Assembly: GCA_029747015.1 (NCBI GenBank)
Contig: JAKOGI010000052.1
Location: 30,001 to 94,000 of the forward strand
From: Carnegiea gigantea
Taxonomy: Eukaryota > Streptophyta > Magnoliopsida > Caryophyllales > Cactaceae
Length of the DNA stretch: 64,000 nt
Reading direction: 5' to 3'
The notes under the pieces are model-generated. The model had not been told where the DNA came from and searched no databases. It saw only the letters and a list, made by a program, of their open reading frames with translations. Below are positions 12,640 through 34,351 of the stretch, in pieces. The position numbers were made by a program, and so were the translations under genes. The number at the start of each line of letters is the position of its first letter. Within the stretch, counting starts at the first letter, position 1.

Positions 12640-12831
12640 TTTATGGGTTTGTGAGTGTTTTGAATCGACGGTTTTCTGAGCGCTTTTTGCTTTTGTATTT
12701 TTTCGAGCGGTTTTTTAATTTTGATTATGTGGCGCACGCCAACGGGGCAATTGTGAGCCAGTTATGCTTCACACTCTCTCCTCTCCTGTTGTTCATAGTG
12801 TGTGTTTGGGAGAAGAAGACAAACTCAACCC
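12640..12831. other. Unassigned sequence between MULE copy 1 and the hAT-like element
   Basis: Moderately GC-rich stretch with pyrimidine runs. It may include the MULE right end or its flank; no terminal inverted repeat or target duplication could be recognised. Confidence 0.4.
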
Positions 12832-13702
12832 TAGGGTTGCTCATGGTTCGGGTATCGAACCAAAAGAGATTTCAGTTCGGGAACCTAAAATTTTGGGTCA
12901 GACGGCTGGCGAACTGTATCCGAACCGATAATTATCAAATACCTGATAATTTCGGTTCGAGTTTTTGCTTGCCTGCTAACCCAATTTTGGTGAACCTTCT
13001 TTTTTTGCCAAGTGATTTTGTTGCATGCAACACTAGGAGGGCGCTTTGTTGACTGTTGACTGCGACTATGTGAGACTGTGAGGAGCCGAGGGAGCCTTCT
13101 TGAGTCCAAGACAGAGCAGAATTGTCGAGGTTATTGGCCGTCGATCATCGATCATTGGCCGTTAGAGGGAAGAGAGAGAGCATTGAGAGTGAGTATAGCT
13201 TAGCGCTTACAGTGTCTGTGTTCGTGGCTGCGAGGTTGAGTAACTGGGAGTCACCTTGTTGAGTTCGAGACAGAGGAAACTTGGTAGGGACTGTTGGTCG
13301 TCGGTCGTTGGCCATCGGCCATCTGAGGGGCGGTCGGAGGGGGGAGAGGTAGAGAGAGTCTATGTGAGAGGACTGAGAGCCGAGAGCTCAAGGGCTGCGG
13401 GTGTGACTGGAGAGTCTGGGTGAGAGAAATTAGGGTTTGAAAAATAGCATGGTAGTAGCACACTGGCATGCCTCCTATTTCTTAAAAACAAAAAAAAATT
13501 AGAAAAAAAGGATTTTCGGGTTTTCGGGTACCCGAATTCATAAAATGGCCGACCCATACCCGAATCGAATATCTGAAAAAATTATTGGTACGGTATCCGA
13601 ACTAAATTTTTCAAATATTTCGATTTCAATACTCGAATTTTTGGATCAGGTAGCAGGTTTTCTGTTTGAATATTTGGTTTTGGATATTTTTGAACACCCC
13701 TA
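12832..13702. mobile_element. Non-autonomous hAT-like element (about 0.87 kb)
   Basis: The left end reads TAGGGTTGCTCATGGTTCGG, and the right end on the opposite strand reads TAGGGGTGTTCAAAAATATC, giving hAT-like inverted termini. Several TTCGGGTA/TACCCGAA motifs sit near both ends. The interior has GA-rich sequence and no transposase. The flanking octamers (CTCAACCC and CTAGTCAA) do not match, so the boundaries or the integrity of the element are uncertain. Confidence 0.5.
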
Positions 13703-14280
13703 CTAGTCAACGCCCCCTTTTATGTGGTCCAAAAAAAAATCCGCCTTCATTTCTTTTTCTTTTTCTTTTTTCTTTTGGCAATATAATTAGCCCCCTTTTC
13801 CTTTTTTTTGTACTGATGGCGTTAATATCCCATTTTTCTCTATCTTTCTCTCTCTTTTCTTTTGAGATAAGGCCTTAGTTGACCCAATAATTCAACTTTC
13901 AATTATTCTACAGGTATAATAACACTAGCTTAAAATACAAATATGTGCCTAAAACTATTCAAATGCACAAAATACACATATAAATTACACTATTACATAT
14001 AAACCAAAGCTAATAACTAAAATTTTGCGGTGTTGCATGATGTGGCTTTGATGTTGTAATGTCAAGTACCTCTCATAAAGTAATTCCAGGAACGGGGCGG
14101 CCAGGAGGAGACAGGCGTAGTAACAGTTGTCAGTGGTGAGTGAGTGATTTTTTTTTCCCTTGTAATTTTGTTAAGAAAATAGCTTGGAAGGCATTATCTT
14201 GGATGTTCTATTATAATTCTCAGAGCATAACTATCCTAAACTCAAAGAGCAAGCAACATTGGAAATGCGGTATGACTAGC
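13703..14280. other. Unassigned AT- and CT-rich sequence
   Basis: Pyrimidine-rich tracts at about 13,730-13,860 followed by AT-rich DNA. No coding region, RNA gene or mobile-element end was recognised. Confidence 0.4.
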
Positions 14281-15111: not shown

Positions 15112-16631
15112 TTCACAAGACTGATGCAGCAAGCAAGTATGCAACCGGGTTTTTCAATTCACCCTCACTGTGGGAAGTTAAATTTAACTCACCTCATGTT
15201 TGCAGATGACGTCATGATTTTCAGTAAGGCTCACCCTCCTACACTGGCTCTTATCATGCAAGCTCTTCATACCTGTCACCAGACTGCAGGTTTGAAGGCC
15301 AACCACTCCAAATCTCAAATTGTCTTTGGAGGTTGTACTCCTCAATTGCAACTCACCCTCCTACATTGGCTCTTATCATGCAAGCTCTTCATACGTGTCA
15401 CCAGACTGCAGGGTTGAAGGCCAACCACTCCAAATCTCAAATTGTCTTTGGAGGTTGTACTCCTCAATTGCAACAATCATGTCTCCACATCATCGGCTTC
15501 CAGGAAGGTGCTCTCCCACTTACCTACTTAGGGGTTCCTATTACAGCAAGCAAGTTAAGTAAGCTGGAGTGTAGGTCTCTCGTCGAGAAAATAAAGGGGA
15601 AAATCAAGTTATGGTCCTCCAGAAGCCTCTCCTTTGCAGGGAGGGCTCAGTTACTTAACTCTATAGTGTTTGGGATGTATAACTTCTGGGCCTCTATTTT
15701 TATACTCCCCCAAGAAGTGATTGATCAAATTACTCAACTTAGTAGGAACTATTTGTGGAGTGGGTCAGCTGAATACAAAAGGACCCCTTACATTTCCTGG
15801 AAAGTTGTTTGCTCCCCGAAAAAATATGGAGGACTGGGTCTAAAAAATCTGGCTGCATGGAATAAAGCAAGCATACCAAAACTTGTTTGGTTTATAGCCT
15901 TGAAGAAAGACAATCTTTGGGTCAAATGGGTTCATGGAAAATACTTAAAAGGCACTCAATGGTGGAGCTACCAAGCCCCAGCTGACTGCAGTTGGTATTG
16001 GAAGAAAGTGGTCCATACAAAGGAGGCGTTCAAAACAGGCTCGGTGCTTAATATCAGGCCTGGACATGTAAGCAGATACTATTCGGTCAAACTGGGCTAT
16101 TCATGGATGCTGGGAAACAGAAGCCCTTAGCCATGGAGTACTTTAATATGGAACAGGACAGCGTTACCCAGGCAAACCTTCATAGCATGGCTATTTTTCC
16201 ACCAAAGAGTTCCTGTGAGGCAGAGACTAGCCAAATTCAATAACCAGACAGGAGAAGTGTTATGTGCGTTGTGCAATGAAGGAGAGGAAACCATGGAGCA
16301 CCTATTCCTCTCCTGTAGCTAGGCTTGGGAATTCTGGCATTTGCTGTCACAGTGGTGGCCACTTCCACATTTCAACCCCACCTATGTCTCTTTCTTCACG
16401 GCCTTGAAGCGGATGAAAGGAAGTCGTAAGCAGAAGCACATAACATATGCAATGGTCGCAGCAGCACTATATCAGATATGGAGGGCTCGAAACACCAAAA
16501 TCTTTGATCACAAAATTTTGCCAGTTTCCACTATTTTTTGCTACACAAAAGAACTCTTCATCGAGCGAATTCTTTTTCTTAATCAGTTAAATAGGAAATA
16601 CGATACACATATAGATCAGTTGCTACGATGA
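15110..16631 (+). pseudogene. 5'-truncated L1-type LINE reverse transcriptase with zf-RVT region
   Basis: Starts inside the reverse transcriptase: KLNLTHLMFADDVMIFSKA carries the FADD catalytic motif. It continues through the RT thumb and connection region (PLTYLGVPITASKLSKLEC, SLSFAGRAQLLNSIVFGMYN, GGLGLKNLAAWNKA), typical of plant L1 elements. A zf-RVT cysteine region follows (CALCNEGEETMEHLFLSC, about 16,262-16,318), then a C-terminal tail to 16,631. The reading frame is broken by the 122-bp internal duplication, by a TAG near 16,127 and by a stop next to the zf-RVT block, so it is inactive. An (AT)n tract follows at 16,689, a common setting for a LINE 3' end. Endonuclease and ORF1 are absent. 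Confidence 0.9.
15231..15474 (+). repeat. 122-bp tandem duplication inside the LINE
   Basis: The segment from TCACCCTCCTACACTGGCTC at 15,231 is repeated at 15,353 with few differences. The unit is not a multiple of three, so it shifts the RT frame. It covers the region just after the FADD motif. Confidence 0.9.
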
Positions 16632-19464: not shown

Positions 19465-20969
19465 ATTACAGCAAGTAGATTTTGTAGGTTTCACAATAGC
19501 ATGTTGACCTTAGAAATGAAATATCAGCTCTTCCTTTTATCACAGGAGCATGTTACATTAGGTGGCTAATTCAAAAAAGGAAAAAGATCTAGCTCATCTA
19601 GCAAATTGTAACTTGAAGAAAAATTGTGAATTTGGGGCTAGTTGTCGGGAAAATAACAATTGAAAATCGAGTGTAGTATACGCGGAAGCGTAGAAGGAAT
19701 GTGGCTATTTGAGAAAATAAGCATGATTTAAAAAAAAAGATGACAATGAGCACACAAAATTTTACGTGGAAACCCAAATCGAGAGAAAACTACGGCTGGC
19801 AATATGGTACAAAATCCATTATGCAAATGAGAGTACAAATTAGATCTCTATGAGCATCATTATATTGAATGACCTGGCTAGAATTGCTCCCCCGGGTGCT
19901 ACAATCATAAATCCATAATCATAATTGGATGCCTCACATTCAAGAAGATATATGATGCTCGTTGTCTTAAAATGTGCTCAGCTGCTGACTATGCCCAGTT
20001 ACTTGAATCCCTCCCTATGTAGATCCACACTTTTTTTTAGGCTTTTATTGTGTTGCTCTTTTGATGCAGTAGCTATTTCCTCCTTTTTCCTTACTTCTTT
20101 GATATATTTTTAGTGAATTTTTAAATCAAGCAAATTAACAATATTTGCATTGAAATTTTTTTGATTTCTCGAAATCAATCTTTGCTAGTATAAAATTGTT
20201 CATATCTGAATCTTTGTCATCTTGCTTAAATAGGCCGGATTCACATAGTATAGTTATTGTTGTAGTATTGCACAAAAAATAGTTATATATGATTTTCCTC
20301 ATAAACTGGGGATTTAGAAAATTCGTCACTGTTTCCTTGGGTGTGAGTCAAATTTTCCAGGGCCTCAATGAATGATATAAAGGCAGCAGATTGGTTTGAC
20401 TACTTGTTATGAGCACGTTATTGAACTGGAAAGGCCTGGCTTCAATTGTTCGTGCTGTTACGCTTCAGATTTACACATTACCATAATTTTAAGAGCATCA
20501 ACATTTGCGTTCTTTCATAGCATGCTCACGCATATGCGATGAAAAAGTTCAAATTTGTCCTATAATTTGCTCAGATGTGCTTTGTGATAGGGCTGTAAAA
20601 CTTTCAATGTTGTTTAGAGCTTCAAAGTTTCTAGTAGAGCTCCGAAGTGAGCTCCATATATGCATTCCCAAAAGGTAATATGCACACAAGAGATAACATG
20701 ACCATAATGTGACTCTATGAGTATTAACTACAATCAACTGTTAATTAGTGCATTGGTTTTTGCTACCAGGATGGAAGGTGATAAAGGCAGCACTAGTGAT
20801 CCCACTGATAGTTGAAGGGCAAAAGAAAGGACTGATGAAATTCGCGATCATTACATGTCAAAAGCTAGAGTAGTTCATTTGCAAATTGCAATCACATAAG
20901 GGATATTCTAATTGATTAGTTCCTTGGTGCGTTACAGCTCAATGCCAGCTGAAGTGATAGCAAATGATG
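19465..20969. other. Unassigned sequence
   Basis: No domain, RNA gene or convincing exon. The stretch 19,620-19,900 has an LTR-like flavour (ACGTGGAAACCCAAATCGAG), and a short coding-like stretch starts at about 20,771 (MEGDKGSTSDPTDS, then a stop). Neither can be assigned. Confidence 0.35.
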
Positions 20970-21249
20970 ATTGGGGTCGGACTTTCTCTTCTGTAATTAT
21001 TTTTCCCTACAAGTGTGGTATAGTTCATACTTCCCTCGTTCTCCCCATCTATTTTTTTTATAAAATTTTTTAGTTTCTTTTTGGGTTTTTGTATTGTGAC
21101 ATTCTGCTAGTCGAAGTTAAACTTGTTCATGAAAAAAGCAGGTACAATTAAATGGATATGTCCCCATCAATAATTGATTAAGAGTAGGTATGAGTCATGC
21201 ACAATTATTTCCAACAGCGAGACGTACGCTCAAACTATTGTATTTGTAC
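20970..21249 (+). repeat. Left half of dispersed repeat unit A, split by the viral insertion
   Basis: Closely similar to 31,500-31,773, beginning ATTGGGGTCGGACTTT and ending in the octamer ATTTGTAC at 21,242-21,249. The unit continues on the other side of the 9.5-kb insertion at 30,757. Confidence 0.85.
21242..21249. repeat. Left 8-bp target-site duplication of the viral/hAT-like insertion
   Basis: ATTTGTAC, identical to 30,749-30,756. The same octamer occurs once in the uninterrupted relative at 31,766-31,773. Eight base pairs is the hAT duplication length. Confidence 0.85.
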
Positions 21250-22830
21250 TAGGGGTGAGCAAGTGGGTATCCCGATCACGTGGACTTTTTGGTTTTTTGT
21301 GGCATTATTACGACGTTGTCTTGCAAATTTCTGAATTGTTTTGCGAATTTCTTTATGGTGTTGGTTCTAATTAGTCTTCTTCATCTGTATAATATGTTAC
21401 TTGAGAACCCTTGTTGTTCATGTTTGGTTGAATCTAAACAGTATATTTAAAAGTTACTTCTAACAGAGCAATATTATCTTTTAATAAATTTATAGTTATA
21501 AGATGGATTCGTTCGTGTATGGTGAATAATTAGTTTAATCGATTCTTATAGTGATTGAACTCCTGGGAGTTAGATCAAAAGATCTTAAATAGTTACCTTC
21601 TCTTTCTTGAATATAGTGTTTTAGTTCTGGTAAATTAAAACTTTGTCCTGCTAAATAGTTACCATCTTTGTCTAACTTAGAGTTAGATTGTAATTTATTT
21701 TTAAATAAATTCATTATAGTTGTACTTAAGTTAAAGATTAGTTTTAGAGGTAGGGCTCTGATACCATTTCATAGAGAGTCAAGTGGTTTTTTCTGGAAAA
21801 AGCGATAAAACCATTTCTTGAATTATTAGAGTGATTCGCACTATTTTTAAAAAAAAGATTTGCCAAGATTTAATGGAGGTACTCGGATACTAAATCAACA
21901 GAATAAAATTTCAAACAATCTGGCATGAAATCTTTCAATACAAAAATGAATTAGAGAAATTATACCTTCAGGAGCTTGATGCGTCCTACTTTTTCATACT
22001 CGTCTTACTCCACCCTAATGCGAGCTTTACCTACTTCTTTCAGACTGTTGCCACTCTTGCTAATATTCTTTCTCTAATCAAGGTTGGAATGAAAAATTTA
22101 TAGACAAATAGTTTGAAGAAAGATTTCTCTTATTTCATTGTTGATTGTTCTCCTTTTCCAAAGGTAGGGAATTAGAACATTTTGCAGAGAGAATGCTTAC
22201 AAAGATTTGAAGGAGTGTTTCTTACAAATGCCGATGCCTTCTTCTAAAATCGGCTACCTTATTTATAGGGGAAGAGGGTGCGCTATGACATAAGCGCTTA
22301 TATCATGAGAATCTAAAAAGATAAGATTTCCAGTTAAAAAGATAAGCTTTACAGATAAGATTTTACTATTCTTGATAGAGTTGCTTGATCTTCGTTGTCT
22401 TGTGGTGTTGGCATAGATAAGAGTTGATAAAGCTGTGATCCCTTATATTTCACATCGTGACAGAGTGACTAGGCTAGAAAAATCTGCTCCTTTTCCTTGT
22501 CTTGTTCTGCCTTATAGAGTTCAACAAACTTGGTGCGTACAGCTGCACTGTCTAGAAATTTCTTGGCTCTAGTGAATAGCTGAAGTCAAAAAGTTGTTCA
22601 TTGACAGAGACACTTTCAGCTCTTTTAGTAGTAACTAGAATGAGATTTTCGTCGAAGTAAAGAGTTCTTGCTCCTTTAGTCATTCATCGCTCGGTCTGGC
22701 ATTTGATGGCTAAGGCGCCTGTGGAACATTTATAGTTGATCCAGTCCTTATCAAAATGAGAAATTTTATACTGTTTGAATTTGTCAGTAGAGAAGGTTGC
22801 TTGATACTCGTATTCCTTTTTCAGTATAAG
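21250..22830. repeat. Left arm of the large inverted repeat ending the viral insertion
   Basis: The reverse complement of 29,195-30,748 with scattered differences and small indels. It includes the primer-site complement, the leader, and the 3' part of an ORF fused to movement-protein remnants. Confidence 0.9.
21755..21766 (-). other. tRNA-Met primer-binding site, left arm
   Basis: TGGTATCAGAGC on the minus strand, the conserved caulimovirid minus-strand DNA initiation site, with GAAA before and CCTACC after as in the right arm. Confidence 0.85.
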
Positions 22831-23620
22831 AAAGTCTAAGTGCTTGATAGCTGGTTGATGCTTCATCTTCTTTAACTAATTGAAAGTCTGTTAATGCATG
22901 CATTTTGGCTTCTTGCATAGGAGGAGAGATAATGGTACTGATGGTTGAAAAGATTGGATCTACTGTTATTTTACTTGTTTGTTTACATCTTGTATTGGAA
23001 AGTTGGTATTGAAAAAAATGTACAAACCTCTGTAATGAAAGGATAATACATCATTTTCTAGTTGTAATCTAATATCGGCTAAGAGTTTAAATTGCAAATT
23101 TAAAGTGTCGTCTATATTTTTACTTTGTAAAGTAACAGAATAATTCGGATAGCATTCAAAAATTAATTTTTTGTAAATTAGATTTCCTTGTAATGTTCCT
23201 AGATGGCTGTTCTGGATATTTCGAAATCTTTGATCATGTGATGATAGAATGGTAGCTGAATTAATTCCTTTTTTAAAGCAAGCATTAACTGCGATTTGTA
23301 TTCATTGTAAATGGACATACTTAATTAGTTTTCTATCTTTAGTAGAAATTTCTGCTAAAAATTTGTCAATTATTTCTTGAGTCATTAATCTTAATTGGAT
23401 GTTTCCCTGTAAATGTTGAACTTTAACTGGTTGTTCTGTAGTATAAAACTTAAAATATCTTAATAATTTTCATGTTAGAAAATCATCCCATTTTTTCATA
23501 AAATTTCGAGGGTCCTTTAAAGATAAATCAGCTGCTATAATTTTTTCATAAAGTTTCTAGTTGAAAGTTATTATTCCAGTTTAATTTTCATGATTTTCTT
23601 GTTCTTATTGTTGCATGATT
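22684..23620 (-). pseudogene. Caulimovirid movement-protein region fused to a 3' ORF remnant
   Basis: On the minus strand, a 30K-type movement-protein-like stretch is readable near 23,060-23,260 (LGTLQGNLIYKKLIFECYPN, then a block ending FHYRGLYIFF). It continues into ISPPMQEAKMHALTDFQL at about 22,900. Near 22,830 the homology with the right arm jumps from position 26,100 to 29,195. This arm therefore lacks the protease, RT, RNase H and most of the 205-residue ORF, through an internal deletion of about 3 kb. The 60-residue open frame at 22,684-22,866 spans this fusion point. Stops interrupt the remainder. Movement proteins of this family tubulate plasmodesmata; this copy cannot be functional. 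Confidence 0.6.
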
Positions 23621-25000
23621 TCCATCTCTTTAGTACTCATCTTCTATATTTGAATAGCTTTCTGTTTTTGATGTACTTGTTTCAGATTCAGAGCTAATAG
23701 AATCATAACAGCTTGAAATTGCTTCATGTATACTAGAGTTTATCGGACAAACTTCATCTTGAATTTCTTCAAATTCTTCTGAGAAGAGTTTTACTATATT
23801 TGCTTTTCTTTTGTTACAATCAATAGATTTGTGTCCTATTTCTCCATAATTCCAACATTGACAAGCAGTAGGGTTTTATTTCTTTTATAATATCTATTTT
23901 GTCGATTAAAGTTTTCTTGAGTCAAATTTTCGTGTCGAAAATATTTACTAGTTTTTTGTAGTTTATTTAATAGTTTTTTAGTTTTTGCTTTTTCAATTTT
24001 TGTTCTCTTAGGTGAAAGCTTCTTCTTTTTAGAGAATTTTTTCTTTGGTATTTTTCTAGGGTTAGGTTTCTTGGTATATTGTTTTGGAGTTCTTTTTCGT
24101 TTAGGTCTGAAATTTGGATAGTTTTCACAGTCATATTATCCTGGTTCTTTTACATCTTCACAACACAGAGTTACTTCTTTAATATATTTCCGTCTGCTTT
24201 CTTGTAAACAAAGTTGCATCATTTCCTTATTTATTAGAGTTTGAACTGCGACTACAGATCTAAAGATAGCGGGATTCTTCGTATAAACTTCAAATTTGTC
24301 GGAGAAGTATTTATTCTATGGATGAGAAAATTTATTTAATAATAGTTGGATATAGGGCTTTTATAGTTGCATAAGTCACAGATTCTTAAATTGGTTAGTT
24401 TGTATAAGGCTTCTTTTTTCCCTTCTAGTCTGTTTAATTCTAGATTTTCAATAAATTCATATCCTTGAAATTGTTCTATTAAATATTTTTCAAAGGTCCA
24501 CACACTATGTTCAATAGATATTCCAAGATTTCTTTTTATGTCCACTTCTATTAAATTTCTTATAGGTAAAGACAATCCATTATATCAATTTAGTACAATT
24601 CTTTGTAAAGAGTAAATTATTAAATTATAGATGGCATTAACATCTCTATCTTCTGCGGCATTAGTTGGTTCTTGCAATAAAGATAGTATTATGGAATTTC
24701 TCTAAGTGCCTAAAGGTATTCTTTTATCAGTTACACAGTCTATATTTAAAATATAGCCCCATGCAGGTACTGGTTCTAAAAGTAAAGGGTTTTTTAGTTT
24801 AAATTCTTCATTGATAGTACTCATTCTCATTGGAGGTCTCCTTTTGTTTTGGAAGTTATCAGTATGTTTATTCTTTTGGGTTGGACTATTTTTAAAAGGA
24901 TTAGAAGGTTCTCCAATTCATAGTTATTCAAATTGTTACTTCCTACACTTCCTGTGGCTGTTCATAATTGTATGTTTACTTGTTTTACTAGTCCAGTTAA
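23620..25000 (-). pseudogene. Caulimovirid coat-protein-like region with degenerate zinc knuckle
   Basis: Minus-strand region with heavily lysine- and arginine-rich stretches (about 23,940-24,110) followed by a zinc-knuckle-like motif near 23,820-23,870 (CQCWNYGEIGHKSIDC). The second cysteine of the canonical CCHC has become tyrosine. Upstream, 24,336-24,575 holds an open stretch (NLIEVDIKRNLGISIEH near its start) typical of the conserved core of coat proteins. Frame breaks are present throughout. Confidence 0.6.
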
Positions 25001-25020
25001 TTGCAGATTTTCGAAGTCAT

Positions 25021-25386
25021 TTAGCAATTCTTCAATAATTTTATTATATTTGCCCAATATTGATTATTTTCTGCTTCTTCTTGTTTTACTTTGGCTTTAA
25101 GTAAACGTCTTTCTTCAACAGTTTTGCGGATAGCTTCCTTTTGTACTTTTAAAATGTTATTTTGGTATCGTTCAATATATTTAGCATCATCACTGTTGGG
25201 AGTCACTTTATCGAGAAGTTTAATTTCCATAGACGTATATTCTCTTTTTTGTTTAGGTTTCAACATTCCTTCAAATGTTAAATTTATAAGTTGCATCTGC
25301 ATTATTAGTTGTTTAATAGAGTTATTTATTTCTCTAATTTCTTCTTTAATAGCTTTTGGTTCGTTTTCTAATTGCGGAATGCTCAT
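25021..25386 (-). CDS. Viral coiled-coil ORF, 121 residues (fossil)
   Basis: Open frame starting MSIPQLENEPKAIKEEIREI, rich in Glu, Lys, Ile and Leu and predicted by eye to be largely helical or coiled-coil. It starts 24 nt after the preceding ORF and precedes the coat-protein region. In related viruses small ORFs at this position include virion-associated proteins with a coiled coil, but sequence identity was not established. It is intact in this copy despite decay around it. Confidence 0.55.
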   Translation of the reverse strand: MSIPQLENEPKAIKEEIREINNSIKQLIMQMQLINLTFEGMLKPKQKREYTSMEIKLLDKVTPNSDDAKYIERYQNNILKVQKEAIRKTVEERRLLKAKVKQEEAENNQYWANIIKLLKNC

Positions 25387-25410
25387 TATTTATTAATCTT
25401 CATCATTAAG

Positions 25411-25725
25411 CTAAAATCCCGTATCAAATTGATCTAGGTCGTTATCAACGTTGTTGTCTATATTTTCACAGATTTCTAAATAAGTTCTTCTTTCTTCTTC
25501 ATAAATTAAGAGGTCTAGTCTATCTTCATTTAACCAAATTGTTTCTTTAAAGCTATTATTTTTCCTTAGCTGTTTAATTTTTTGTATATAAAATTTTTCT
25601 TTTTGTAATATTTCTTTCTTCGAAAAAGTTTTATATAAGTTGAGAACAGATTCACAGTTTCTTTGAATCATTATTTTTAGTTTGGGAATTTCAGGTTTTT
25701 TCATTCTGCTAAAAATTTTTCTCAA
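25411..25725 (-). CDS. Viral small ORF, 104 residues (fossil)
   Basis: Open frame on the minus strand, lysine-rich N-terminal half and acidic C-terminal end (NIDNNVDNDLDQFDTGF). It lies directly upstream of the coiled-coil ORF in the same polycistronic order. A short upstream frame starting MNDIEFELELDEGMYGDTDM lies at about 25,885. Function not recognised. Confidence 0.5.
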   Translation of the reverse strand: MRKIFSRMKKPEIPKLKIMIQRNCESVLNLYKTFSKKEILQKEKFYIQKIKQLRKNNSFKETIWLNEDRLDLLIYEEERRTYLEICENIDNNVDNDLDQFDTGF

Positions 25726-25904
25726 GTAAATAAATGTCTATTAGTCGGTTAATTATCGTTATTATTTTTAATTCAAAAATTAAACAGTCATTTTTGTTTT
25801 GACATAAATATTTCAGTAGTTATAACATATCTGTGTCCCCATACATTCCTTCGTCAAGTTCAAGCTCAAATTCTATGTCATTCATGCTTAAAGTTTTGAA
25901 TTAA

Positions 25905-25917
25905 AAATAATAACAAC
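25905..25917. other. Head-to-head junction between the two viral arms
   Basis: To the left, minus-strand viral sequence starts upstream of the small ORFs. To the right, plus-strand sequence starts inside the movement-protein region at CTTTCCAATAAAAG, the counterpart of 22,995 in the left arm. The change of direction occurs within about a dozen bases. Confidence 0.75.
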
Positions 25918-26169
25918 TTTCCAATAAAAGATGTAAAACAAACAAGTAAAGTAACAGTAGATCCAATCTTTTCAACCATCAATATCATTATCTCTCCTCC
26001 TATGCAAGAAGCCAAAATATCTGCATTAACAGACTTTCAATTAGTTGAAGAAGATGAAGCATCAACCAGCTATCAAGCACCTAGACTTTCTTATACTGAA
26101 AAAGGAAGACAAGTAGCCAATCAATCCATTTTAACATGAAGTTATAGTGCAGCAACTATACCCAGGTTT

Positions 26170-26560
26170 ATACCTCCATTACTAACAACTTAGCGTAATC
26201 GCACCTACAAAGTAAAATTAGACTATTTTAATGGACAAACATGGATCTCTAATAAAATCCTAATAGATACAGGAGCATCACAAAAGCCATTGTATACCTC
26301 TACCCATAGCAATCTCAGCAGCATCAGAATATAACTTTGTTACTTATGATGGTCAATGAGCAACTCTAAATCAAATGTCTAAAATAATGTTAGAAACTCC
26401 TAATTCTACTCTATTAGAATTTGATTGCTATATCGATCATTCAATAAAAAAATAAATTTTATCATATACTCTTAGGAATGAATTTTTTTGATCAATATAC
26501 TAACTATGAGATTAGTCTTACACATATAACTCTTATGAATCAACGCACAACCATTATTCT
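26170..26560 (+). pseudogene. First retropepsin-like domain of the viral polyprotein (broken)
   Basis: ILIDTGAS at about 26,256-26,280 is an aspartic-protease active-site motif. After a frameshift the same domain continues with PLPIAISAASEYNFVTYDGQ (flap-like) at about 26,300-26,358. It ends in a GMNFFDQYTNYEISLTHITL block at about 26,478-26,538, the usual C-terminal retropepsin signature position. Frameshifts and stops destroy it. A second such domain follows at once. Confidence 0.65.
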
Positions 26561-26569
26561 TAAACGATT

Positions 26570-26944
26570 ATGAAGCAACTCGAAATCCCTATTCTTACAT
26601 ATATTGATGTAACTGTCAAAGAATTAGACATTACTACTACTGCTTTGATTGATACAGGATCCGAAGTTACTTTCTTTCAAGACTTTTTACTTCACACATG
26701 GGATAAACTCCCTAATAATCGTAAAATTAGAATCAAAGGTGTTCATCCTATTCCTACCTATTTAGATTTGGTCCAAACTAATGTTTCCATTATTTTAGGT
26801 AACAAAATCCTCACTGTACCCACTGTTCTACAATATAACTCTGGATATGATATTTTATTAGGAAATGATTTCCTTAAACAATTTGCCAAATTTACCCAAA
26901 CTCCATATACTGTCTATCTTACTAGAAATGTGGTCATACCTTAA
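26570..26944 (+). CDS. Second retropepsin-like domain of the viral polyprotein (124 residues open)
   Basis: Open frame with TTTALIDTGSEVTFFQ near residues 22-37 (DTG active site), a central strand region, and YDILLGNDFLKQFAKF near residues 92-107. This is the arrangement of caulimovirid and retroviral pepsins that process the polyprotein. It ends at a stop where the original pol frame probably continued toward RT. Confidence 0.75.
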   Translation: MKQLEIPILTYIDVTVKELDITTTALIDTGSEVTFFQDFLLHTWDKLPNNRKIRIKGVHPIPTYLDLVQTNVSIILGNKILTVPTVLQYNSGYDILLGNDFLKQFAKFTQTPYTVYLTRNVVIP

Positions 26945-27059
26945 AAATTCCAACTCTAAAACAACCGCACAAAGTGCGCACGAAGCATAGTGGACACAGT
27001 TATGAACAAATTGCACTTCAAATACAAGCACAAAAACTACTTTTACAATTAATATAATA

Positions 27060-28430
27060 AAGAAAGATGACCTCTTAGCAAAACTCAAAAGAATCTGTTC
27101 TGAAAACCCATTGCAATTCTAAAAACCTAAACATCCTAGAGCTAAAATAGAACTAGTACAAGAAATATATATCAAATAAAAACCCATGCTATAATCTGAA
27201 GAAGACATCAAGGAATTTTCTATACAAATAAAAGAATTACTTGAAAAAGGATCAATTAGACCATCCAATGGAGCATACTCTTTGCCAACCTTTATGGTAG
27301 TTAACGAAGCAGAGCGACGAAGAGGAAAAGCTAGAATGATTATAACTATAAAAAACTAAATCAGTTTACAAAAACAGATAATTATTTCCTACCTTACAAA
27401 GAAGTATTAATTAACCTCATAAAAAATAAAAAGTTCTTCTCAAAATTTGATTGTAAGTCTGGCTTTTGACAGATTAAAATGGAAGAAATAAGCATTAAAT
27501 ATACAGATTTTAGTACACCTCAAAGTTTTTATGAATGGATTGTTATGCCTTTTGGACTAAAAATGCACCAAGAATCTTTCAACGACGAATGGACAATATG
27601 TTTAAACATCTTAACATTTTTTTTGTTGTCTATGTAGATGATATTTTAATAAGTTCAGATACTTTATCGAAACCATCTTAACACATTTATTGAAACAACA
27701 ATTAAAGAAGGCATCTACCTTAGTGAGAAAAAAGCTGTGATTGAAAAAGAAAAAATTGATTTTTTAGGCTTTGAAGTCGGTATAAATGGAATCAGTTTAC
27801 AACCACATATCTCTCAAAAAATCATGGAATATCCAGACCAACTGCGAATAAAGAAACAAATTCAAGGTTTCTTAGGACTATTAAACTATGCTAGTTCTTA
27901 TATACCAGACTTCGCAAAAAAGAAAAAAGATTTGCAAAGTCTACTCAGAAAAAACAATACTCTTAATTGGATAGAAAAACATACAGAAATTGTGAAGAAA
28001 TTAAAAGAGGAATGTCAACGACTTCCCAGTCTTAAACTCCTTAACCTGAAGATAACTTAATTCTTCAAACAGACGCATCTCACAAAACATGGGCAGCAGT
28101 CTTAAAGACAGATTTAAATGAAAATTGTGGTTATCATAGTTGAGCTTTTTCGGAAAGAGAAGAAAATTATAATACTATAGACAAAGAACTTTTGGCAATT
28201 ATTAGAGGAATTACAAAATGGAGACTCTTTTTACTACCTAAGCCATTTAAAGTTTTAACAGATAACCAACCAGCAACTACTTTTGTAAAATAAGCTTTAG
28301 ATAATGGGCCTCACATGTGCAAATGATATCAATGGCAACTATTTTTATCTTAGTTTAATGTTGTGTATGAGCATGTGGTCGGTAAAAAATAACTTTATTG
28401 CAGATTATCTAACTTGAGAACATAAGTTCA
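27060..28430 (+). pseudogene. Caulimovirid reverse transcriptase - RNase H region
   Basis: RT blocks are recognisable in shifting frames: SIRPSNGAYSLPTFMVVNEA at about 27,256, a FSKFDCKSGF block at about 27,437, WIVMPFGLKM at about 27,538, and the catalytic FFVVYVDDILISS at about 27,617-27,655. The connection follows (FLGFEVGINGISLQPHISQK within the open stretch 27,737-28,060), then RNase H with LQTDASHKTWAAVL at about 28,062 and LTDNQPAT at about 28,255. Many stops and frameshifts are present. In a living virus this enzyme copies the RNA pregenome to DNA. Confidence 0.9.
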
Positions 28431-28451
28431 GAGGATAAAGGCAAAGCACCG

Positions 28452-28634
28452 ATGGAACAAGTAGATAGTAAACAACAAATTCGAAACTTTGAAGACATCT
28501 TGATTAATGTTAACGAATACTGTGAAGTCGTCAGCGAAAAAATTGAACTTATTGAGGAAATTGTTGTAGATCTCAGAGCCGACCTTGGTAAAGCTCGAGA
28601 ACTTACAACTTATTTCCATCAAACTATTGAATAG
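28452..28634 (+). CDS. Short coiled-coil viral ORF after RNase H (60 residues, fossil)
   Basis: Open frame of acidic, Glu/Ile/Leu-rich sequence (EKIELIEEIVVDLRADLGKA) with heptad-like spacing, lying 21 nt before the next ORF. No family recognised. It may be the start of the inclusion/transactivator-type protein of the genome. Confidence 0.5.
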   Translation: MEQVDSKQQIRNFEDILINVNEYCEVVSEKIELIEEIVVDLRADLGKARELTTYFHQTIE

Positions 28635-28655
28635 CTCAAGTCGAACTCCACCAAG

Positions 28656-29273
28656 ATGGATTTGAATAAAGTCCAATCTGAACTCTTAAAACTATCTTTT
28701 CATCGAAATCAGGGCAACGCTTTGCACCCCCTCTCTGAAGAAGAGAAAGAGAAGCAACAATTAAATGCTAAGCTATTAGCATCAAGACAGGTCATTCAAA
28801 ATACTGGCATCCGAACTATTGATCTATTAGACTCTTTTTACAGAAACTATTATGAAGCGACCGTTTTCGCTTACCAGAAAATCTTTGGATTACCTGAACT
28901 ATATTATAATCCAAGGGATTCTTTATTACCACGAATTCTTGCTTTTAATAAGGCAATTCCTGACCTGATCTTTGAAATCTTTACCTACAGATATTTAAAC
29001 TATTGTTATCCCAGCTTAAGCCTTATTGAGCTCCAAAAATTTCCAAACTCCTTTAAACAAGCCATCAAGCAATTCAGCAAGGGATATGTATGCCTTCAAT
29101 TCTTTTCAATCTCTCCTGAAAAGGATGAAGAAACTATCTATCATTCCATTCACTTGGTAGAAATCACCCACGTTAATCCCAAGCAACCTATCTCTACTGA
29201 CAAATTCAAACACTACAAATTTCTCATTTTGACAAGAGCTGGATCAACTATAAACGTTCCACATGTGCCTTAG
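28656..29273 (+). CDS. Viral 3' ORF, 205 residues (frameshifted at the end)
   Basis: Open frame downstream of RNase H and upstream of the primer site, starting MDLNKVQSELLKLSFHRNQ. In position it corresponds to the transactivator/inclusion-body ORF of several caulimovirid genera, but I could not match its sequence to that family. Comparison with the left arm shows that near 29,225 a frameshift changes the end: the left arm reads on in another frame, so the ancestral protein was longer. The 205-residue product is therefore a truncated version. What the ORF did is unknown. Confidence 0.55.
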   Translation: MDLNKVQSELLKLSFHRNQGNALHPLSEEEKEKQQLNAKLLASRQVIQNTGIRTIDLLDSFYRNYYEATVFAYQKIFGLPELYYNPRDSLLPRILAFNKAIPDLIFEIFTYRYLNYCYPSLSLIELQKFPNSFKQAIKQFSKGYVCLQFFSISPEKDEETIYHSIHLVEITHVNPKQPISTDKFKHYKFLILTRAGSTINVPHVP

Positions 29274-30217
29274 CCATCAAATGCAAGACCAAGCGATTAA
29301 TAACTAAAGGAGCAAAAACTCTTTACTTCGACGAAAATCTCATTCTAGTTACTACTGAAGGAGCTGAAAGTGTCTCTATCAATGAACAACTTTTTGACTT
29401 TAGCTATTCACTGGAGCCCCAAGAAATTTCTAGACAGTCTAGCTGTACGCACCAAGTTCGCTGAACTCTATAAGGCAGAAGAAGACAAGGAAAAGAAGCA
29501 GATTTTTCTAGCCTAGTCACTCTGTCACGATGTGAGACATAAGGGACCACGGCTTTATCAATTCTTATCTCTACCGACACTACAAGGCAACGAAGATCAA
29601 GCAACTCCATCAAGAATAGTGAAATCTTATTTGCAAAGCTTATCTTTTTAGCTGGAAATCTTATCTTTTTAGATTCCCATGATATAAATGCTTATGTCAT
29701 AGCATACTATCTTCCCCTATAAATAAGGTAGCCGATTTTAGAAGAAGGCATCGGCATTTGTAACAAACACTCCCTCAAATCTTTTTAAGCATTCTCTCTG
29801 CAAAATGTTCTAATTTCCTACCTTTGGGAAAGAAGAACAATCAACAATGAAATAAGAGAACTCTTTCTTCAAACTATTTGTCTATCAATTTTTCATTCCA
29901 ACCTTGATTAGAGAAAGAATATTAGCAAGAGTGGTGATAGTCTGAAAGAAGTAGGTAAAGCTCGCATTAGGGTGGAGTAAGGCGAGTATGAAAAAGCAAG
30001 ACGCATCAAGCTCCTAAAGGTATAATTTCTCTAACTCAGTTTTGTATTGAAAGATTTCATGACAGATTATTTGAAATTTCATTCTGTTGATTTAGTATCC
30101 GAGTACCTCCATTAAATCTTGGCAAATCCTTTTTTAAAAATAGTGTGAATCACTCTAATAATTCAAGAAATGGTTTTGCCGCTTTTTTCATTAAAAACCA
30201 CTCGACTCTGTATGAAA

Positions 30218-30230
30218 TGGTATCAGAGTC
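30218..30230 (+). other. tRNA-Met primer-binding site, right arm
   Basis: TGGTATCAGAG followed by TC, one base different from the left-arm site. It marks position 1 of the circular viral genome by convention. Confidence 0.85.
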
Positions 30231-30299
30231 CTACCTCTAAAACTAATCTTTAACTTAAGTACAACTATAATGAATTTATTTAAAATAAATTACAATCTA

Positions 30300-30700
30300 A
30301 CTTTGAGTTAGACAAAGATGGTAACTATTTAGTAGGACAAAGTTTTAATTTACCGAAACTAAAACACTATACTTAAGAAAGAGCATGGGACTATTTAAGA
30401 TCTTTTGATCTAACTCCCAGGAGTATTAGATAAAACTTGTGAAATCATTATAAGAATCGATTAAACTATTTATCCACTATACCCGAACGAGTCCATCCTA
30501 TAACTATAAGTTTATTAAAAGATAAGATTGCTCTGTTAGAAGTAACTTTTGAATATACTGTTTGGATTCAACCAAACATGAACAACAATAATTCTCAAAT
30601 AACATATTGCACAGATGAAGAAGACTAATTAGAAGGAACACCATAAAGAAATTTGCAAAACAATTCAGAAATTTACAGGACAATGTTGTAATAATGCCAC
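30300..30700 (+). pseudogene. Start of the first viral ORF downstream of the primer site
   Basis: Coding-like sequence in shifting frames follows the primer site: DGNYLVGQSFNLPKLKHY at about 30,317, then LRSFDLTPRSI, then KDKIALLEVTFEYTVWIQPN at about 30,520-30,580. The left arm has the same stretch with different breaks. The ORF is cut by the insertion boundary at 30,748. Confidence 0.55.
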
Positions 30701-30748
30701 AAAAAACCAAAAACTCCACGTGACTGGGTACCCATTTGCTCATCTCTA

Positions 30749-30756
30749 ATTTGTAC
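30749..30756. repeat. Right 8-bp target-site duplication of the viral/hAT-like insertion
   Basis: ATTTGTAC, identical to 21,242-21,249, followed by CAGTCGACTATGAG exactly as in the uninterrupted relative at 31,774. Confidence 0.85.
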
Positions 30757-30935
30757 CAGTCGACTATGAGATGATGTGGAGATGGTTTTATGCCATTTGG
30801 ATGGTGGAAGTTTTTTTAATGACCTGTCAGCAACTAATACATGGATAAATCCAATGCCATGTTATTATTCCGATGATTCCAAGTCTATTTTAAGTCGGTG
30901 AAGGCATATTAAAAGTAAATAAGGTCGCCCCTCCC
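30757..30935 (+). repeat. Right half of dispersed repeat unit A
   Basis: Matches 31,774-31,940 (CAGTCGACTATGAGATGATG onward to AAAAGTAAAT). Together with 20,970-21,249 it makes one unit of about 450 bp. Confidence 0.85.
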
Positions 30936-30978
30936 AACCCAACAATGTCATCACTTTCTATCTCTTGTTCTTCCTGTT

Positions 30979-31025
<47 letters not shown>

Positions 31026-31048
31026 CAACAATAATAATAATAATAATG
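30979..31048. repeat. (TAA)n trinucleotide repeat
   Basis: About 70 bp of TAA repeat with an (AAC)3 interruption at about 31,021-31,030. Confidence 0.95.
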
Positions 31049-31263
31049 TTCACACTTAAATGCCCAACCCCTGCAATACAATTCGCAGTCTCGCTCGTTG
31101 TCTATGCTTTATACCTGTTTTTTTTCCCCTTGTTTTATTATTTCAAGAAATATTTTTTGATCTTCTATCAAATGTAAATGTATATAATTATACTTCTTTC
31201 GTACTTTTGTTATCCACAACTTTTTCTAAAGCACAGAAGTTACTGAAATTGCACAAATCATGA

Positions 31264-31361
31264 CTATATATATATATACACACACACACACACATACACA
31301 TACGTACATATACATACATACATGTATATCTACACGCGCGCGTGCGCGCGCACACACACAC

Positions 31362-31420
<59 letters not shown>

Positions 31421-31443
31421 ATATATATACACCACATACATAC

Positions 31444-31481
<38 letters not shown>

Positions 31482-31494
31482 TTGTGTGTGTGTG
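31264..31494. repeat. Compound AT/AC/GC/GT microsatellite cluster
   Basis: Alternating purine-pyrimidine DNA over about 230 bp: TA, CA, CATA, a GCGCGCGTGCGCGCG stretch at about 31,336-31,350, a long TA run, then GT. It ends where repeat unit B begins. Confidence 0.95.
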
Positions 31495-31499
31495 GTGCA

Positions 31500-31940
31500 A
31501 TTGGGGTCAGACTTTGTCTGCTGTAATTATTTTTCCCTACAAGTGTGGTATAGTTTGCACTTCCCTCGTTCTCCCCATCTATTTTTTTATAAAATTTTTT
31601 AGTTTCTTTTTCAGTTTTTGTATTGTGATATTCTGCTAACCAAGTTAAACTTGTGCATGAAAACAGCATGTACAATTAAATTGATATGTCCCCATCAATA
31701 ATTGATTAGGAGTAGGTATGAATTGTGCACAATTATTTTCGATAGTGAGACGATCAAACTGTCTTATTTGTACCAGTCGACTATGAGATGATGTAGGGGC
31801 GGTTTTATGGCATGTGAATGGTGACAGTTTCTTTAATGACGCGTCAACAACTAATACATGGATAAATCCACTGCCATGTTATTCTTCCGATGACTCGAAG
31901 TCTATCTTAAGTCGGTGATGGCATATTAAAAGTAAATATC
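31500..31940 (+). repeat. Dispersed repeat unit B (uninterrupted; empty-site relative)
   Basis: A contiguous relative of unit A, with a single ATTTGTAC at 31,766-31,773. It lies immediately left of MULE copy 2. Unit identity beyond this (parent element) was not recognised. Confidence 0.85.
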
Positions 31941-32614
31941 CTTAAAGTTCGAGGTGCAAGGTTCTTTTCAACGTTTAGGCTATTGACATAATACCATCGA
32001 AATTAGGATTATTGATATCTAGAAAAACCCTGAAATTGTGGTTTTTTGTCCAGGCAACTAACTAGCCCATTATATCTCTCATTTTTTTTAAAAAAAAAGA
32101 AAATTCACATTTCTCAAGTTTTAGAAATCGCGGTTTCCATTATCCCTGTTGCTTTGTTCCATTGCTAATCACTCTGTGCTGCTTCGATTGCTTTAGAGTT
32201 TAGCAATTATTCAATGGCTGGGTTTGATCTTAAGGTCGCTATTGATGTTGAAGATTTATCAAACGTGATTTCTTTGTCAAGTTTGATAGCGATTTTCGAT
32301 CTTTGTTTTTGTGTTCGGGTTTGGAAGTTGTGTGTTTTGAATTTGCATTCTGATGAGTTACTTTCGAGATTTTTCAACTAGATTGCATTCAATGTTATGA
32401 TGCCGTGTTCTGAAAATATAATGCAGTTATTGCTTTAAATATATAGTTGGTTTTTGCGATTTGTTGTTTTGGATTTTTGGTAGAATGTTTGGTTTTTGTT
32501 TTGGTTCTATATGGCATTTGTAATTATGTTAATACCGCTTAAGATACAAATAAACAATGTTTTTTCATTTAATGCTTGAATATACTTCATTCTATGTAAA
32601 TTTTGGATTGTGTA

Positions 32615-33345
32615 ATATGAGAAACAATAGCACACCATTATGATGTATGAGTTATGTGCTCACTAAATATAGTAGTTGGTTCACTAAAGATGTATATTTA
32701 GCTCACTTGGTTCAGCTTGCACTCAACAATTATAAATCAGTTCTGTGCTCACTACATGTAATCACTACAATCAATTTTTGTGCATAACTAATAAAAGAAT
32801 AGCTGACTATAATCAGTATAACTCACTGTAAAAAAAAAAAAATATGTTGCCTTATACTACAGAGTAGTTTTTTGCTCACTAAAAAAATCGTTTGGCCCAC
32901 TAGGATTTACCTTTTGTGCTTACCAATTATGCATTATAACTCACCACAAAAATCATGTTTGTGTTTGCAGATGATACTTTTATTGTTGCTATGTACATAT
33001 GAGAAACAATAGCTCACCATTATGAGTTATATGCTCAATAAATATAGTAGTTGGCTCGCTAAAGAAATACATTTAGCTCACTGGGATTCAGCTTGTACTC
33101 AGCAATCAAAAATCGATTCTGCGCTCACTAAATGTAATCACTATAATTAATTTTACATCTAATATGGAAGGCAATGACTCACTATAATCAGTATAGCTTA
33201 CGATAAAAAAAATTTGTTGCCTTTTACTGCAGAGCAGTTTTCTGCTCACTAAAGCAAATGTTTGGCTCACTAGAATTTAGCTTGTGCTTACCAAGTATGC
33301 ATTATAGCTCAACACAAAAATCATGTTGTTTTTACAGATGATACT
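32615..33345 (+). repeat. Intron duplication with two splice acceptors, MULE copy 2
   Basis: Same tandem duplication as at 298-1,003 in copy 1. Acceptor-like sequences lie at about 32,970 (TTTGCAG/ATGATACTT) and 33,338 (TTTACAG/ATGATACTT), so both candidate acceptors remain intact here. Confidence 0.65.
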
Positions 33346-34351
33346 TTATTTTTTCTATCTACATTAGATCATTCTATTGCTAAGGCTGTTGATATTGATG
33401 ATTATGTTATAGTTTTGTGTAATCTTACTGGTGTTTCAAAAGGCAAAGACACGGCTTTTGATGATGGTAATATTGTTGGTGGTGTGTCTAATTGTACTAT
33501 GATTGATTAGGACAAATGTTTAGATGTTGATGATGAATATGTTGTTAAAGTAAAGGAAGCTGACGAATTAGAATTGATTGGTAAAAGGGTCAATTCTATC
33601 AATGTAGCATTTGAAGTATACAACGAGTAAGGGGTTTTCCATAAGATGTGACAAGTTGAGGGAGAGAGAGAGGTCACAAGAGGTGTGTTCAAGGGAGTTT
33701 TGTTGCAACAAACAAGGTATTAAAAGGTGTCCTTAGAAAAAAGATAAGACATTTACAAAACAGAGCCGTATGTGCAATTGTAAAGTTAGGGCTATTTTTT
33801 ACATTGAAACTAATGGGGTATGGGTTTGTAAGAAGCATGACATGATTCATAATCATGAATTACTTTTGGTAGATGAGGTTCATAAGTTGAGGTCACATAA
33901 AAAAGTCGAGAAAGCTTATGTTAATTTTTTCCAAAAGATGAGAAGAAATGGTATGAAAGTTTTCCATGCTTATTAGCTTTTAAGAAATGGGGCTAGGGGT
34001 TCGCCAATACTCAGGTTTAGCAAAAGGGATGCCTATAATAGTGTTGCAAATGACGTCAAGAGGACTTTAGATGGGGCCGATGACAATCATTTGATGTGTG
34101 TTTTAAAAACTAGATGTGTCAACGAGCAAGATTTTTTTTATAAGTTTAAATTAGATGAGGATGATTGTTTGATGAGCTTCTTTTGGAAAGATTCACAAAT
34201 GAAATCTGATTACTTATTGTTTGGTGTTCTCCTTGTATTTGACACGACATATAGGACCAACTATTATGAGATGATAAGCGCATCTTTTGTTTGTATGAAT
34301 TATCATGCGAAGATTGTTATGGTGGGATGCGGATTTTTGATGAATGAGAAT

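What the first reader, a model, noticed from the sequence alone, without database searches (positions are those of the whole stretch)
21242..31773. Endogenous pararetrovirus locus bounded by hAT-like termini and a perfect 8-bp target duplication, with an empty-site relative 1 kb away
Endogenous caulimovirids usually enter by end joining and leave no target duplication. Here the 9,499-bp viral locus begins TAGGGGTGAGCAA and ends (other strand) TAGAGATGAGCAA. It is flanked by ATTTGTAC on both sides (21,242-21,249 and 30,749-30,756). An uninterrupted relative of the flanks carries the octamer once at 31,766-31,773. This is what a hAT transposition of a unit carrying viral DNA would leave. Either a hAT element captured viral sequence, or inverted viral DNA with TIR-like ends was mobilised by hAT transposase.
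Basis: partly seen in the sequence, partly recalled or inferred. Interest (0 to 1): 0.87.

Follow-up and report, generated by a model that had tools for sequence, protein, structure and literature searches.

The report
Plant virus inserted using transposon ends
In this plant genome a family of plant viruses that normally has no integration enzyme sits in the chromosomes as mirror-image double copies that look as if a host "jumping gene" enzyme of the hAT type inserted them, which would be a new way for a virus to enter its host's chromosomes.

Summary
In detail: window 21250-30748 is a caulimovirid (pararetrovirus) locus with hAT-type ends, a perfect 8-bp duplication and uninterrupted paralogues of its flanks. 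It is one of a family. Of 13 elements whose two ends could be read, 12 have duplications matching at 7 or 8 of 8 positions, each different; 1 fails. All 11 interiors read are inverted viral dimers running from leader (outside) toward ORF1 (centre), with variable losses. In two copies a hAT-type end abuts ORF1, so it belongs to the viral circle; in 17 of 39 centres an arm stops within 2 nt of that boundary. The two arms of an element are sisters (7 of 7 testable pairs) and differ neutrally, while differences between elements show purifying selection: separate integrations of a replicating virus, not copies of one jumping unit. A host hAT element shares the first 13-14 bases. Best reading: a virus carrying one hAT end, integrated by host hAT transposase acting on two viral ends, the cut ORF1 ends being joined. 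No experiment; the enzyme is inferred.

The parts
21242..21249 (.). left 8-bp target duplication ATTTGTAC
30749..30756 (.). right 8-bp target duplication ATTTGTAC
21250..21278 (+). left hAT-type terminus, TAGGGGTGAGCAAGTGGGTATCCCGATCA
   Evidence: similar tips in other family members
30720..30748 (-). right hAT-type terminus, reads TAGAGATGAGCAAATGGGTACCCAGTCAC on the - strand
21250..22803 (-). left inverted arm: viral leader and intergenic region plus end of the last viral ORF
   Evidence: 91% identical to the right arm over 1573 columns; viral-sense orientation
29181..30748 (+). right inverted arm
21755..21766 (-). tRNA-Met primer binding site TGGTATCAGAGC, about 505 bp inside the left end (motif recalled)
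30218..30229 (+). tRNA-Met primer binding site with one mismatch, about 519 bp inside the right end
22784..23469 (-). decayed viral movement protein pieces
   Evidence: PF01107 8.3e-16 on piece 22966-23301; neighbouring pieces match other family members in order
23630..24584 (-). decayed coat-protein region with a zinc-knuckle-like stretch (label by position and by eye; no family match)
25021..25737 (-). ORF1 pieces; start of the viral reading frames, next to the centre of the inverted dimer
25895..25909 (.). centre junction of the inverted dimer in this copy (approximate)
25900..26139 (+). end of the movement-protein region, second copy, opposite strand
   Evidence: inverted match 22805-22984 / 25936-26115 at 94%
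26564..26944 (+). caulimovirid aspartic protease piece
   Evidence: PF02160 1.5e-12
27195..28293 (+). reverse transcriptase and RNase H pieces
   Evidence: piece 27653-28060 matches PDB 8r0s 'Enzymatic polyprotein' 1.6e-21; order
28413..29464 (+). last viral ORF, transactivator-like by position (label recalled; no convincing Pfam match)
31499..31938 (+). uninterrupted paralogue of the flanks (empty site), octamer once at 31766-31773
   Evidence: 88% to the joined flanks; more paralogues

Best explanation
A caulimovirid lineage carried, in its circular genome, one hAT transposon end between its primer-binding-site leader and the start of ORF1. Host hAT transposase, supplied in trans, recognised that end. 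Because one circle has only one end, two viral ends were brought together, on two circles or on a dimeric circle. Each was cut at the boundary between the end and ORF1; the two hAT ends were inserted into the chromosome with an 8-bp staggered target, and the two released ORF1 ends were joined by host end joining. The product is an inverted viral dimer with leaders outside, ORF1 at the centre, near-identical arms and a variable, often truncated centre. Shown by sequence: hAT-type ends, 8-bp duplications, inverted dimers, arm sisterhood, neutral-type decay after and purifying selection before insertion, a precise ORF1-side end in many centres, the end abutting ORF1 in two copies, and a host hAT element with matching tips. 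Inferred: the enzyme, two-end pairing, hairpin capping of the ORF1 ends, and end joining.
For: (1) Duplications: 12 of 13 two-ended elements match at 7 or 8 of 8 positions (8 perfect, 4 with one mismatch; C99, C262 and C1505 read by eye), and they fit the Hermes target preference nTnnnnAn given in PMC6900584 (passages): T2 in 9 of 12, A7 in 7 of 12, both in 6 of 12, p about 7e-4 against window base composition. (2) All 11 interiors read are inverted viral dimers, some much shortened. (3) Two arms of one element are sisters in 7 of 7 pairs with both arms intact (support 0.893-1.000), and a viral copy is closer to its mate than to the nearest other copy in 15 of 16 comparable cases. (4) Between elements mean pN/pS is 0.19-0.46 over 15 pieces; within elements dN/dS is 0.68-0.95 in 8 pairs of 280 or more codons, all inside the 5-95% range of a neutral simulation. 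(5) In 17 of 39 centres an arm stops within 2 nt of the ORF1 start. (6) In two more, C498 and C303, ORF1 is directly preceded by a hAT-type end. (7) Host hAT element C751:323992-328183 with PF05699 and PF14372, duplication GATTTATG, left end sharing TAGGGGTGAGCAAA with viral ends such as C858. (8) hAT cleavage leaves hairpins on the flank (passages of PMC6900584).
Against: C655 has no matching duplication. 20 of 39 centres show no end within 2 nt of the ORF1 start; C241 keeps no recognisable ORF1. The circle junction is seen in two copies only and neither is clean: C498 has two tandem end-like pieces in 33 bp, and C303 has a diverged end and an inverted stretch farther out. Of 4 hAT loci read only 1 showed a TAGGGGTG end near the transposase domain; another showed a CAGGGGTG stretch not followed up. 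Terminal modules differ between sublineages beyond the first 8 bases, so one transposase family may not explain all. One viral copy (C180+) is closer to a copy of another element than to its mate. Only 40 of 369 and 40 of 212 first-look candidates were scored. The genome-wide search for the end pattern did not complete.
Confidence: 0.72

Rival explanations
1. One viral molecule makes the dimer before insertion: after transposase cuts the single end, the ORF1 side closes as a hairpin, and replication through the hairpin (or snap-back priming at the free end) makes an inverted dimer with two hAT ends, which then inserts.
For: Arms look identical at insertion. C696 has a perfect palindrome centre at TTGCAA, and C84, C375 and C2141 are near-symmetrical.
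Against: In the 11 elements mapped one arm is usually long and the other cut back, often by kilobases, which needs extra deletions. Filler bases appear in C375 and C2141.
Confidence: 0.2
2. A hAT element captured viral DNA once, or an old inverted viral locus gained hAT ends once, and the unit then multiplied by cut-and-paste.
For: hAT-type ends and 8-bp duplications at many sites.
Against: Left arms do not group with left arms nor right with right in the 7 testable pairs. Divergence between elements is mostly synonymous. Centre junctions differ in all 11 elements mapped.
Confidence: 0.04
3. The enzyme is not a host hAT transposase but a viral or other DDE enzyme with the same 8-bp stagger.
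For: The transposase has not been identified; P-type and some other superfamilies also make 8-bp duplications (recalled).
Against: Pfam scans of 18 of the 22 stop-to-stop frames of 80 aa or more listed in window 20000-32600 found no integrase or transposase. The tips match a host hAT element and target composition fits hAT.
Confidence: 0.1
4. Coincidence: ordinary end-joining integration beside chance repeats.
For: Repair of breaks by end joining is one of the two widely held hypotheses for caulimovirids (PMC10377300 section 3.1, read).
Against: 12 of 13 duplications at different sites, plus uninterrupted paralogues of the flanks.
Confidence: 0.01

Closest known systems
Endogenous caulimovirids (endogenous pararetroviruses)
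   Same: Viral gene set, tRNA-Met primer site, decayed multi-copy loci, inverted pieces. [quoted passage not shown]
   Different: The two widely held hypotheses there are break repair and LTR-retrotransposon help. Here there are 8-bp duplications, fixed hAT-type ends and inverted dimers.
Cotton eCPRVE locus on A04 (PMC10458927, section 3.3 read)
   Same: About 15-kb head-to-head pair of full-size caulimovirid copies, 98.98% identical to each other
   Different: One such locus; a term search of the main text found no 'inverted', 'transpos' or 'target site'. It may be a second example of the same product.
hAT transposons
   Same: TAGGGGTG ends, 8-bp duplications, nTnnnnAn-like targets, host element C751 with the same tip
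   Different: No transposase found inside; carries a virus; the dimer appears to be made anew for each insertion
Teratorn and other virus-transposon fusions (PMC10175614, PMC5822658: search listings and starts of abstracts only)
   Same: A virus joined to transposon machinery
   Different: Teratorn is a herpesvirus fused with a piggyBac-like transposon; here only an end is carried and the enzyme must come from the host
Phages that use host Xer recombinases, such as CTXphi (recalled, not looked up)
   Same: A virus carries only the DNA site and uses a host recombinase
   Different: Bacterial, site-specific recombination; no inverted dimer

Membership tests
hAT superfamily element (non-autonomous) | 8-bp target duplication | tested here: met
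   12 of 13 two-ended elements match at 7 or 8 of 8 positions; C655 fails
hAT superfamily element (non-autonomous) | Short terminal inverted repeat of hAT type, shared with an element that carries a transposase | tested here: met
   TAGGGGTGAGCAAA (13 of these 14 bases in the window's left end) shared with the left end of C751:323992-328183, which carries PF05699 and PF14372; 1 of 4 hAT loci read showed such an end
hAT superfamily element (non-autonomous) | Integrated copies move as a unit by cut-and-paste | tested here: not met
   Arms sister by element; purifying selection between elements
hAT superfamily element (non-autonomous) | Mobilised by a hAT transposase | not testable with these tools
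   Inferred from ends and target composition only
Caulimoviridae (endogenous) | MP, A3 protease and RT/RNase H | tested here: met
   PF01107 and PF02160; RT/RNase H piece against PDB 8r0s
Caulimoviridae (endogenous) | tRNA-Met primer binding site | tested here: met
   With up to 2 mismatches in both arms of 9 of 11 elements and in one arm of C858 and C99 (motif recalled)
Genus Solendovirus | RT phylogeny and four-ORF layout | not tested
   No reference genome fetched; the resemblance in gene order is recalled
Caulimovirid integrated by end joining | No target duplication, no fixed ends | tested here: not met
   (one element of 13, C655, has no duplication)
Virus-transposon fusion of Teratorn type | Carries its own transposase | tested here: inconclusive
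   No transposase among 18 of 22 frames scanned in and around the window's locus; the other elements were checked for viral content only

The most novel reading that the evidence does not exclude
A plant pararetrovirus lineage evolved a cis-acting half-transposon: a single hAT end placed exactly before its first reading frame, with the terminal module replaced several times, so that host hAT transposases integrate viral DNA as inverted dimers by a reaction that parallels V(D)J recombination (hAT ends handled as signal ends, ORF1 ends joined like coding ends). Integration would then be a selected, enzyme-driven part of the virus's biology and would automatically create hairpin-RNA loci that feed silencing.
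Probability: 0.5. Interest if true: 0.96.

Novelty: categorically new. Interest (0 to 1): 0.9.

Why it matters
How caulimovirids enter plant chromosomes is called speculative in the review section read here (PMC10377300 section 3.1), with break repair and LTR retrotransposons as the two widely held hypotheses and a transposon-derived integrase only suggested. This family gives insertion events with defined ends, duplications, uninterrupted flank relatives and a candidate enzyme, so the question becomes directly testable. It would be a virus using a host cut-and-paste transposase by carrying only the DNA end. It also offers a direct origin for inverted-repeat viral loci that make 22-nt siRNAs in tomato (reported in PMC10377300, passage seen). 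Pairing of single ends with joining of the other ends would be a natural parallel to V(D)J-type joining in plants.

Tried and rejected
Capture by one hAT element followed by spread was rejected by arm pairing, selection pattern and differing centres. Gene conversion between arms: mismatches are spread fairly evenly and the longest identical run stays below the 95% permutation value in 7 of 7 pairs. Minus-strand snap-back from the tRNA primer as the source of the outer ends was rejected, because the primer site lies about 505-519 bp inside the ends. A first alignment-based count of centre ends bridged gaps and was dropped for the stricter ungapped count. In one search the concatenated table of 189 between-element pairs had saturated values (mean dS and median undefined, ratios 0.10-1.10), so per-piece means are used. 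Relatives in IMG/VR with the protease and MP pieces: none confirmed. Rfam on the window: no match at gathering scores. The text search for TAGGGGTG with hAT listed only unrelated papers. Rows dropped or not usable: C806 (right terminus not readable), C1089 (three ends, not paired), C12, C841 and C29 (end position uncertain) for the duplication tally; the C858, C180, C655 and C806 pairs in the arm tree, where one arm is truncated or misaligned; 6 of 22 viral copies not comparable; the C241 and C52 pairs (76 codons, ratio 0.56; 63 codons, ratio 1.49) left out of the neutral simulation.
Full report
1. What was claimed and what is there. The 9,499-bp locus 21250-30748 is flanked by ATTTGTAC on both sides, and an uninterrupted relative of the flanks carries the octamer once at 31766-31773. 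The joined host flanks align to that relative without a break (88% over 445 positions). More relatives without an insert sit on contig C136 of the same genome; the motif around the octamer was read in L002, L004 (two), L005, L006, L007 and L008 (two), with ATTTGTAC in L002 and L004 and a one-base variant in the others; L003 is the window's own paralogue. The closest, L002, is 94% identical over 848 bases of left flank but diverges 17 bases past the octamer. The end pattern with up to 3 mismatches occurs nowhere else in the window.

2. Anatomy. The locus is an inverted structure with 1.55-kb arms, 91% identical. Separate stop-free pieces match viral movement protein (PF01107, 8.3e-16) on the - strand and caulimovirid protease (PF02160, 1.5e-12) on the + strand; an RT/RNase H piece matches PDB 8r0s. 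A tRNA-Met primer site lies in both arms about 505 and 519 bp inside the ends (motif recalled). From each end inward the viral order is terminus, leader, primer site, intergenic region, last ORF (transactivator-like, label recalled), RNase H, RT, protease, MP, CP, ORF1. In this copy the left half keeps ORF1-CP-MP and the right half keeps Pol and the last ORF.

3. A family. The window lies in a 1.13-Gb genome at G000:C52:30001-94000. Searching that genome with the terminal 311 bp gave 43 rows from 40 scored of 369 first-look candidates, many as +/- pairs about 8-31 kb apart. Duplications of pairs: C52 ATTTGTAC, C14 GTTGCATT, C858 ATATCAGC, C241 TTTATGAT, C180 GATATGGG, C498 CCCATGTG, C112 GTGATGAT, C262 ATTGTGAT (all 8 of 8); C341 CTTACAAG/CTTATAAG, C156 TTTGCACC/TTTGTACC, C99 AACGTCAC/AATGTCAC, C1505 ATTCCGAA/ATTCCCAA (7 of 8); C655 ctaggccc/cagtaggt (no match) (C99, C262 and C1505 placed by eye). 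That is 12 of 13 elements whose two ends could be read. A chance match of 7 or more of 8 is about 4e-4 per element if bases are equal (own arithmetic). The 12 octamers are enriched for T2 (9), A7 (7) and both (6), p about 7e-4, the preference given for Hermes in PMC6900584 (passages).

4. All interiors read are inverted viral dimers. Ten further elements were fetched, and all ten, like the window's, carry viral pieces in inverted order from both ends; the losses differ, and C241 keeps no recognisable ORF1. Mapped on a ruler of distance from the terminus (unit about 7.8 kb), the 11 elements all have different centres, usually one long arm and one shorter. A search with the ORF1 start region gave 49 rows from 40 scored of 212 candidates. 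Twelve loci show ORF1 head to head with gaps of 57-190 bp (C2141, C53, C729, C375, C858, C2565, C778, C437, C587, C14 at 773 kb, C1383, C831).

5. A precise inner end. In 28 more centres plus the first 11, an ungapped test recognised 49 arms near the ORF1 start; 22 of them begin within 2 nt of it (CTATGG), in 19 of 39 centres. In two of these, C498 and C303, the sequence runs on into a hAT-type end, so that end sits directly before ORF1 in the viral circle; C303 is contiguous with about 200 bp of leader. In the other 17 the arm stops there and other, mostly inverted viral, sequence follows. Of the 19 arms beginning at position 0, 12 are preceded by TA, the last two bases of the hAT end (including the two circle junctions), so the exact break may lie up to 2 nt inside the end or reflect microhomology (counted by eye). 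The other 20 centres show no such end.

6. When and how the dimers arose. In a tree of 30 arms the two arms of one element are sisters in 7 of 7 pairs with both arms intact (support 0.893-1.000), arm-to-arm identity 90-93%. In coding pieces a copy is closest to its mate in 15 of 16 comparable cases; C180+ is the exception. Arm mismatches are fairly evenly spread; Kimura distances 0.072-0.105 give about 2.8-7.5 million years at assumed rates of 1.3e-8 to 7e-9. Between elements mean pN/pS per piece is 0.19-0.46 (15 pieces; for the protease 0.064/0.342); within elements dN/dS is 0.68-0.95 for 8 pairs of 280 or more codons, each inside the 5-95% range of a neutral simulation with assumed transition bias 3 and doubled C/G rate (simulated means 0.62-0.68). 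So the differences between elements accumulated in a virus under selection, and the differences between arms accumulated after insertion. This speaks strongly against spread of one dead palindrome.

7. The hAT side. The first 8 bases, TAGGGGTG or a near form, are shared, while the next 15-45 bases fall into about six modules (by eye) on one homologous inner arm, as if ends had been exchanged. The genome has 150 hAT dimerisation domains scored, all over the cut-off, of 1536 candidates, several in long open frames. One of 4 loci read has a TAGGGGTG end beside its transposase domain. That element, C751:323992-328183 (4,192 bp), has GATTTATG on both sides, left end TAGGGGTGAGCAAAAAAAACCG (14 bases identical to viral ends such as C858, 13 to the window's left end) and right end TAGGGGTGCTCAAAACCGGTTAACCGG (the viral C858 end is TAGGGGTGAGCAAACGGTTAACCGG), with PF05699 and PF14372 in a 505-aa open frame. 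Whether its whole transposase is intact was not tested.

8. Mechanism. hAT enzymes cut so that the flank becomes a hairpin and the element end keeps a free 3'-OH, as in V(D)J recombination (PMC6900584 passages); circular Hermes episomes can reintegrate (PMC2803484 abstract). With one end per viral circle, pairing two ends, inserting them, and joining the two ORF1 sides gives every feature above: fixed outer ends, 8-bp duplications, near-identical arms, ORF1 at the centre, an exact or cut-back inner end, and filler bases (C375, C2141). A single-molecule route through a hairpin is the main rival. The enzyme and the joining are inferred.

9. Literature. The review section read here (PMC10377300 section 3.1) gives break repair and LTR retrotransposons as the two widely held hypotheses and mentions an earlier suggestion of hijacking a transposon-derived integrase (its reference 62, not seen). 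Passages of PMC13308828 and PMC9794742 also treat integration as passive or illegitimate. Ten text searches were answered (some concern hAT elements only). Among the titles and abstract starts listed, none reports caulimovirids with hAT ends or 8-bp duplications; some searches found more papers (31, 15, 312, 404) than they listed (15, 8, 12, 12). Subscription papers and preprints are not held. The nearest structure is the cotton A04 head-to-head locus (PMC10458927, section 3.3). Inverted EPRV pieces in tomato and tobacco are noted in PMC1899175 (passages).

10. Limits. One genome; host unnamed; genus not tested; first-look candidates only partly scored; the genome-wide end pattern search unanswered; no experiment.

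Noticed in passing
window 13300-13702, - strand: A separate hAT-type end, TAGGGGTGTTCAAAAATATCC, followed by CCGAA/GGGTACCC-type subterminal repeats; its other end was not seen among the 25 longest inverted repeats of 9500-14200.
   Followed up: partly
G000 C655, C29, C272, C806, C262, C1505 termini (L033, L036, L064, L038, L032, L062): Sublineages carry different 15-45 bp terminal modules after TAGRGGTG on a homologous inner arm, as if virus ends had been exchanged with different hAT families.
   Followed up: partly
window 32615-33354: A two-copy tandem repeat of about 370-380 bp with many CTCACTA words; similar words lie around 10400-12300.
   Followed up: no
window 20970-21249, 31500-31938; contig C136: The flank belongs to a low-copy repeated segment with several members clustered on C136.
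   Followed up: partly
G000 C180:827382-858542: A viral dimer enlarged to 31 kb by non-viral DNA in the CP region that contains its own TGGTATCAGAGC site, perhaps an LTR retrotransposon.
   Followed up: no
L041:3120-3152: 33 bp before ORF1 in C498 hold two tandem hAT-end-like pieces, ending TTTACTCACCCCTA and TTTGCTCACCCCTA.
   Followed up: no
window 15228-16130 +: 300-aa open frame resembling a LINE-type reverse transcriptase (by eye; no search).
   Followed up: no
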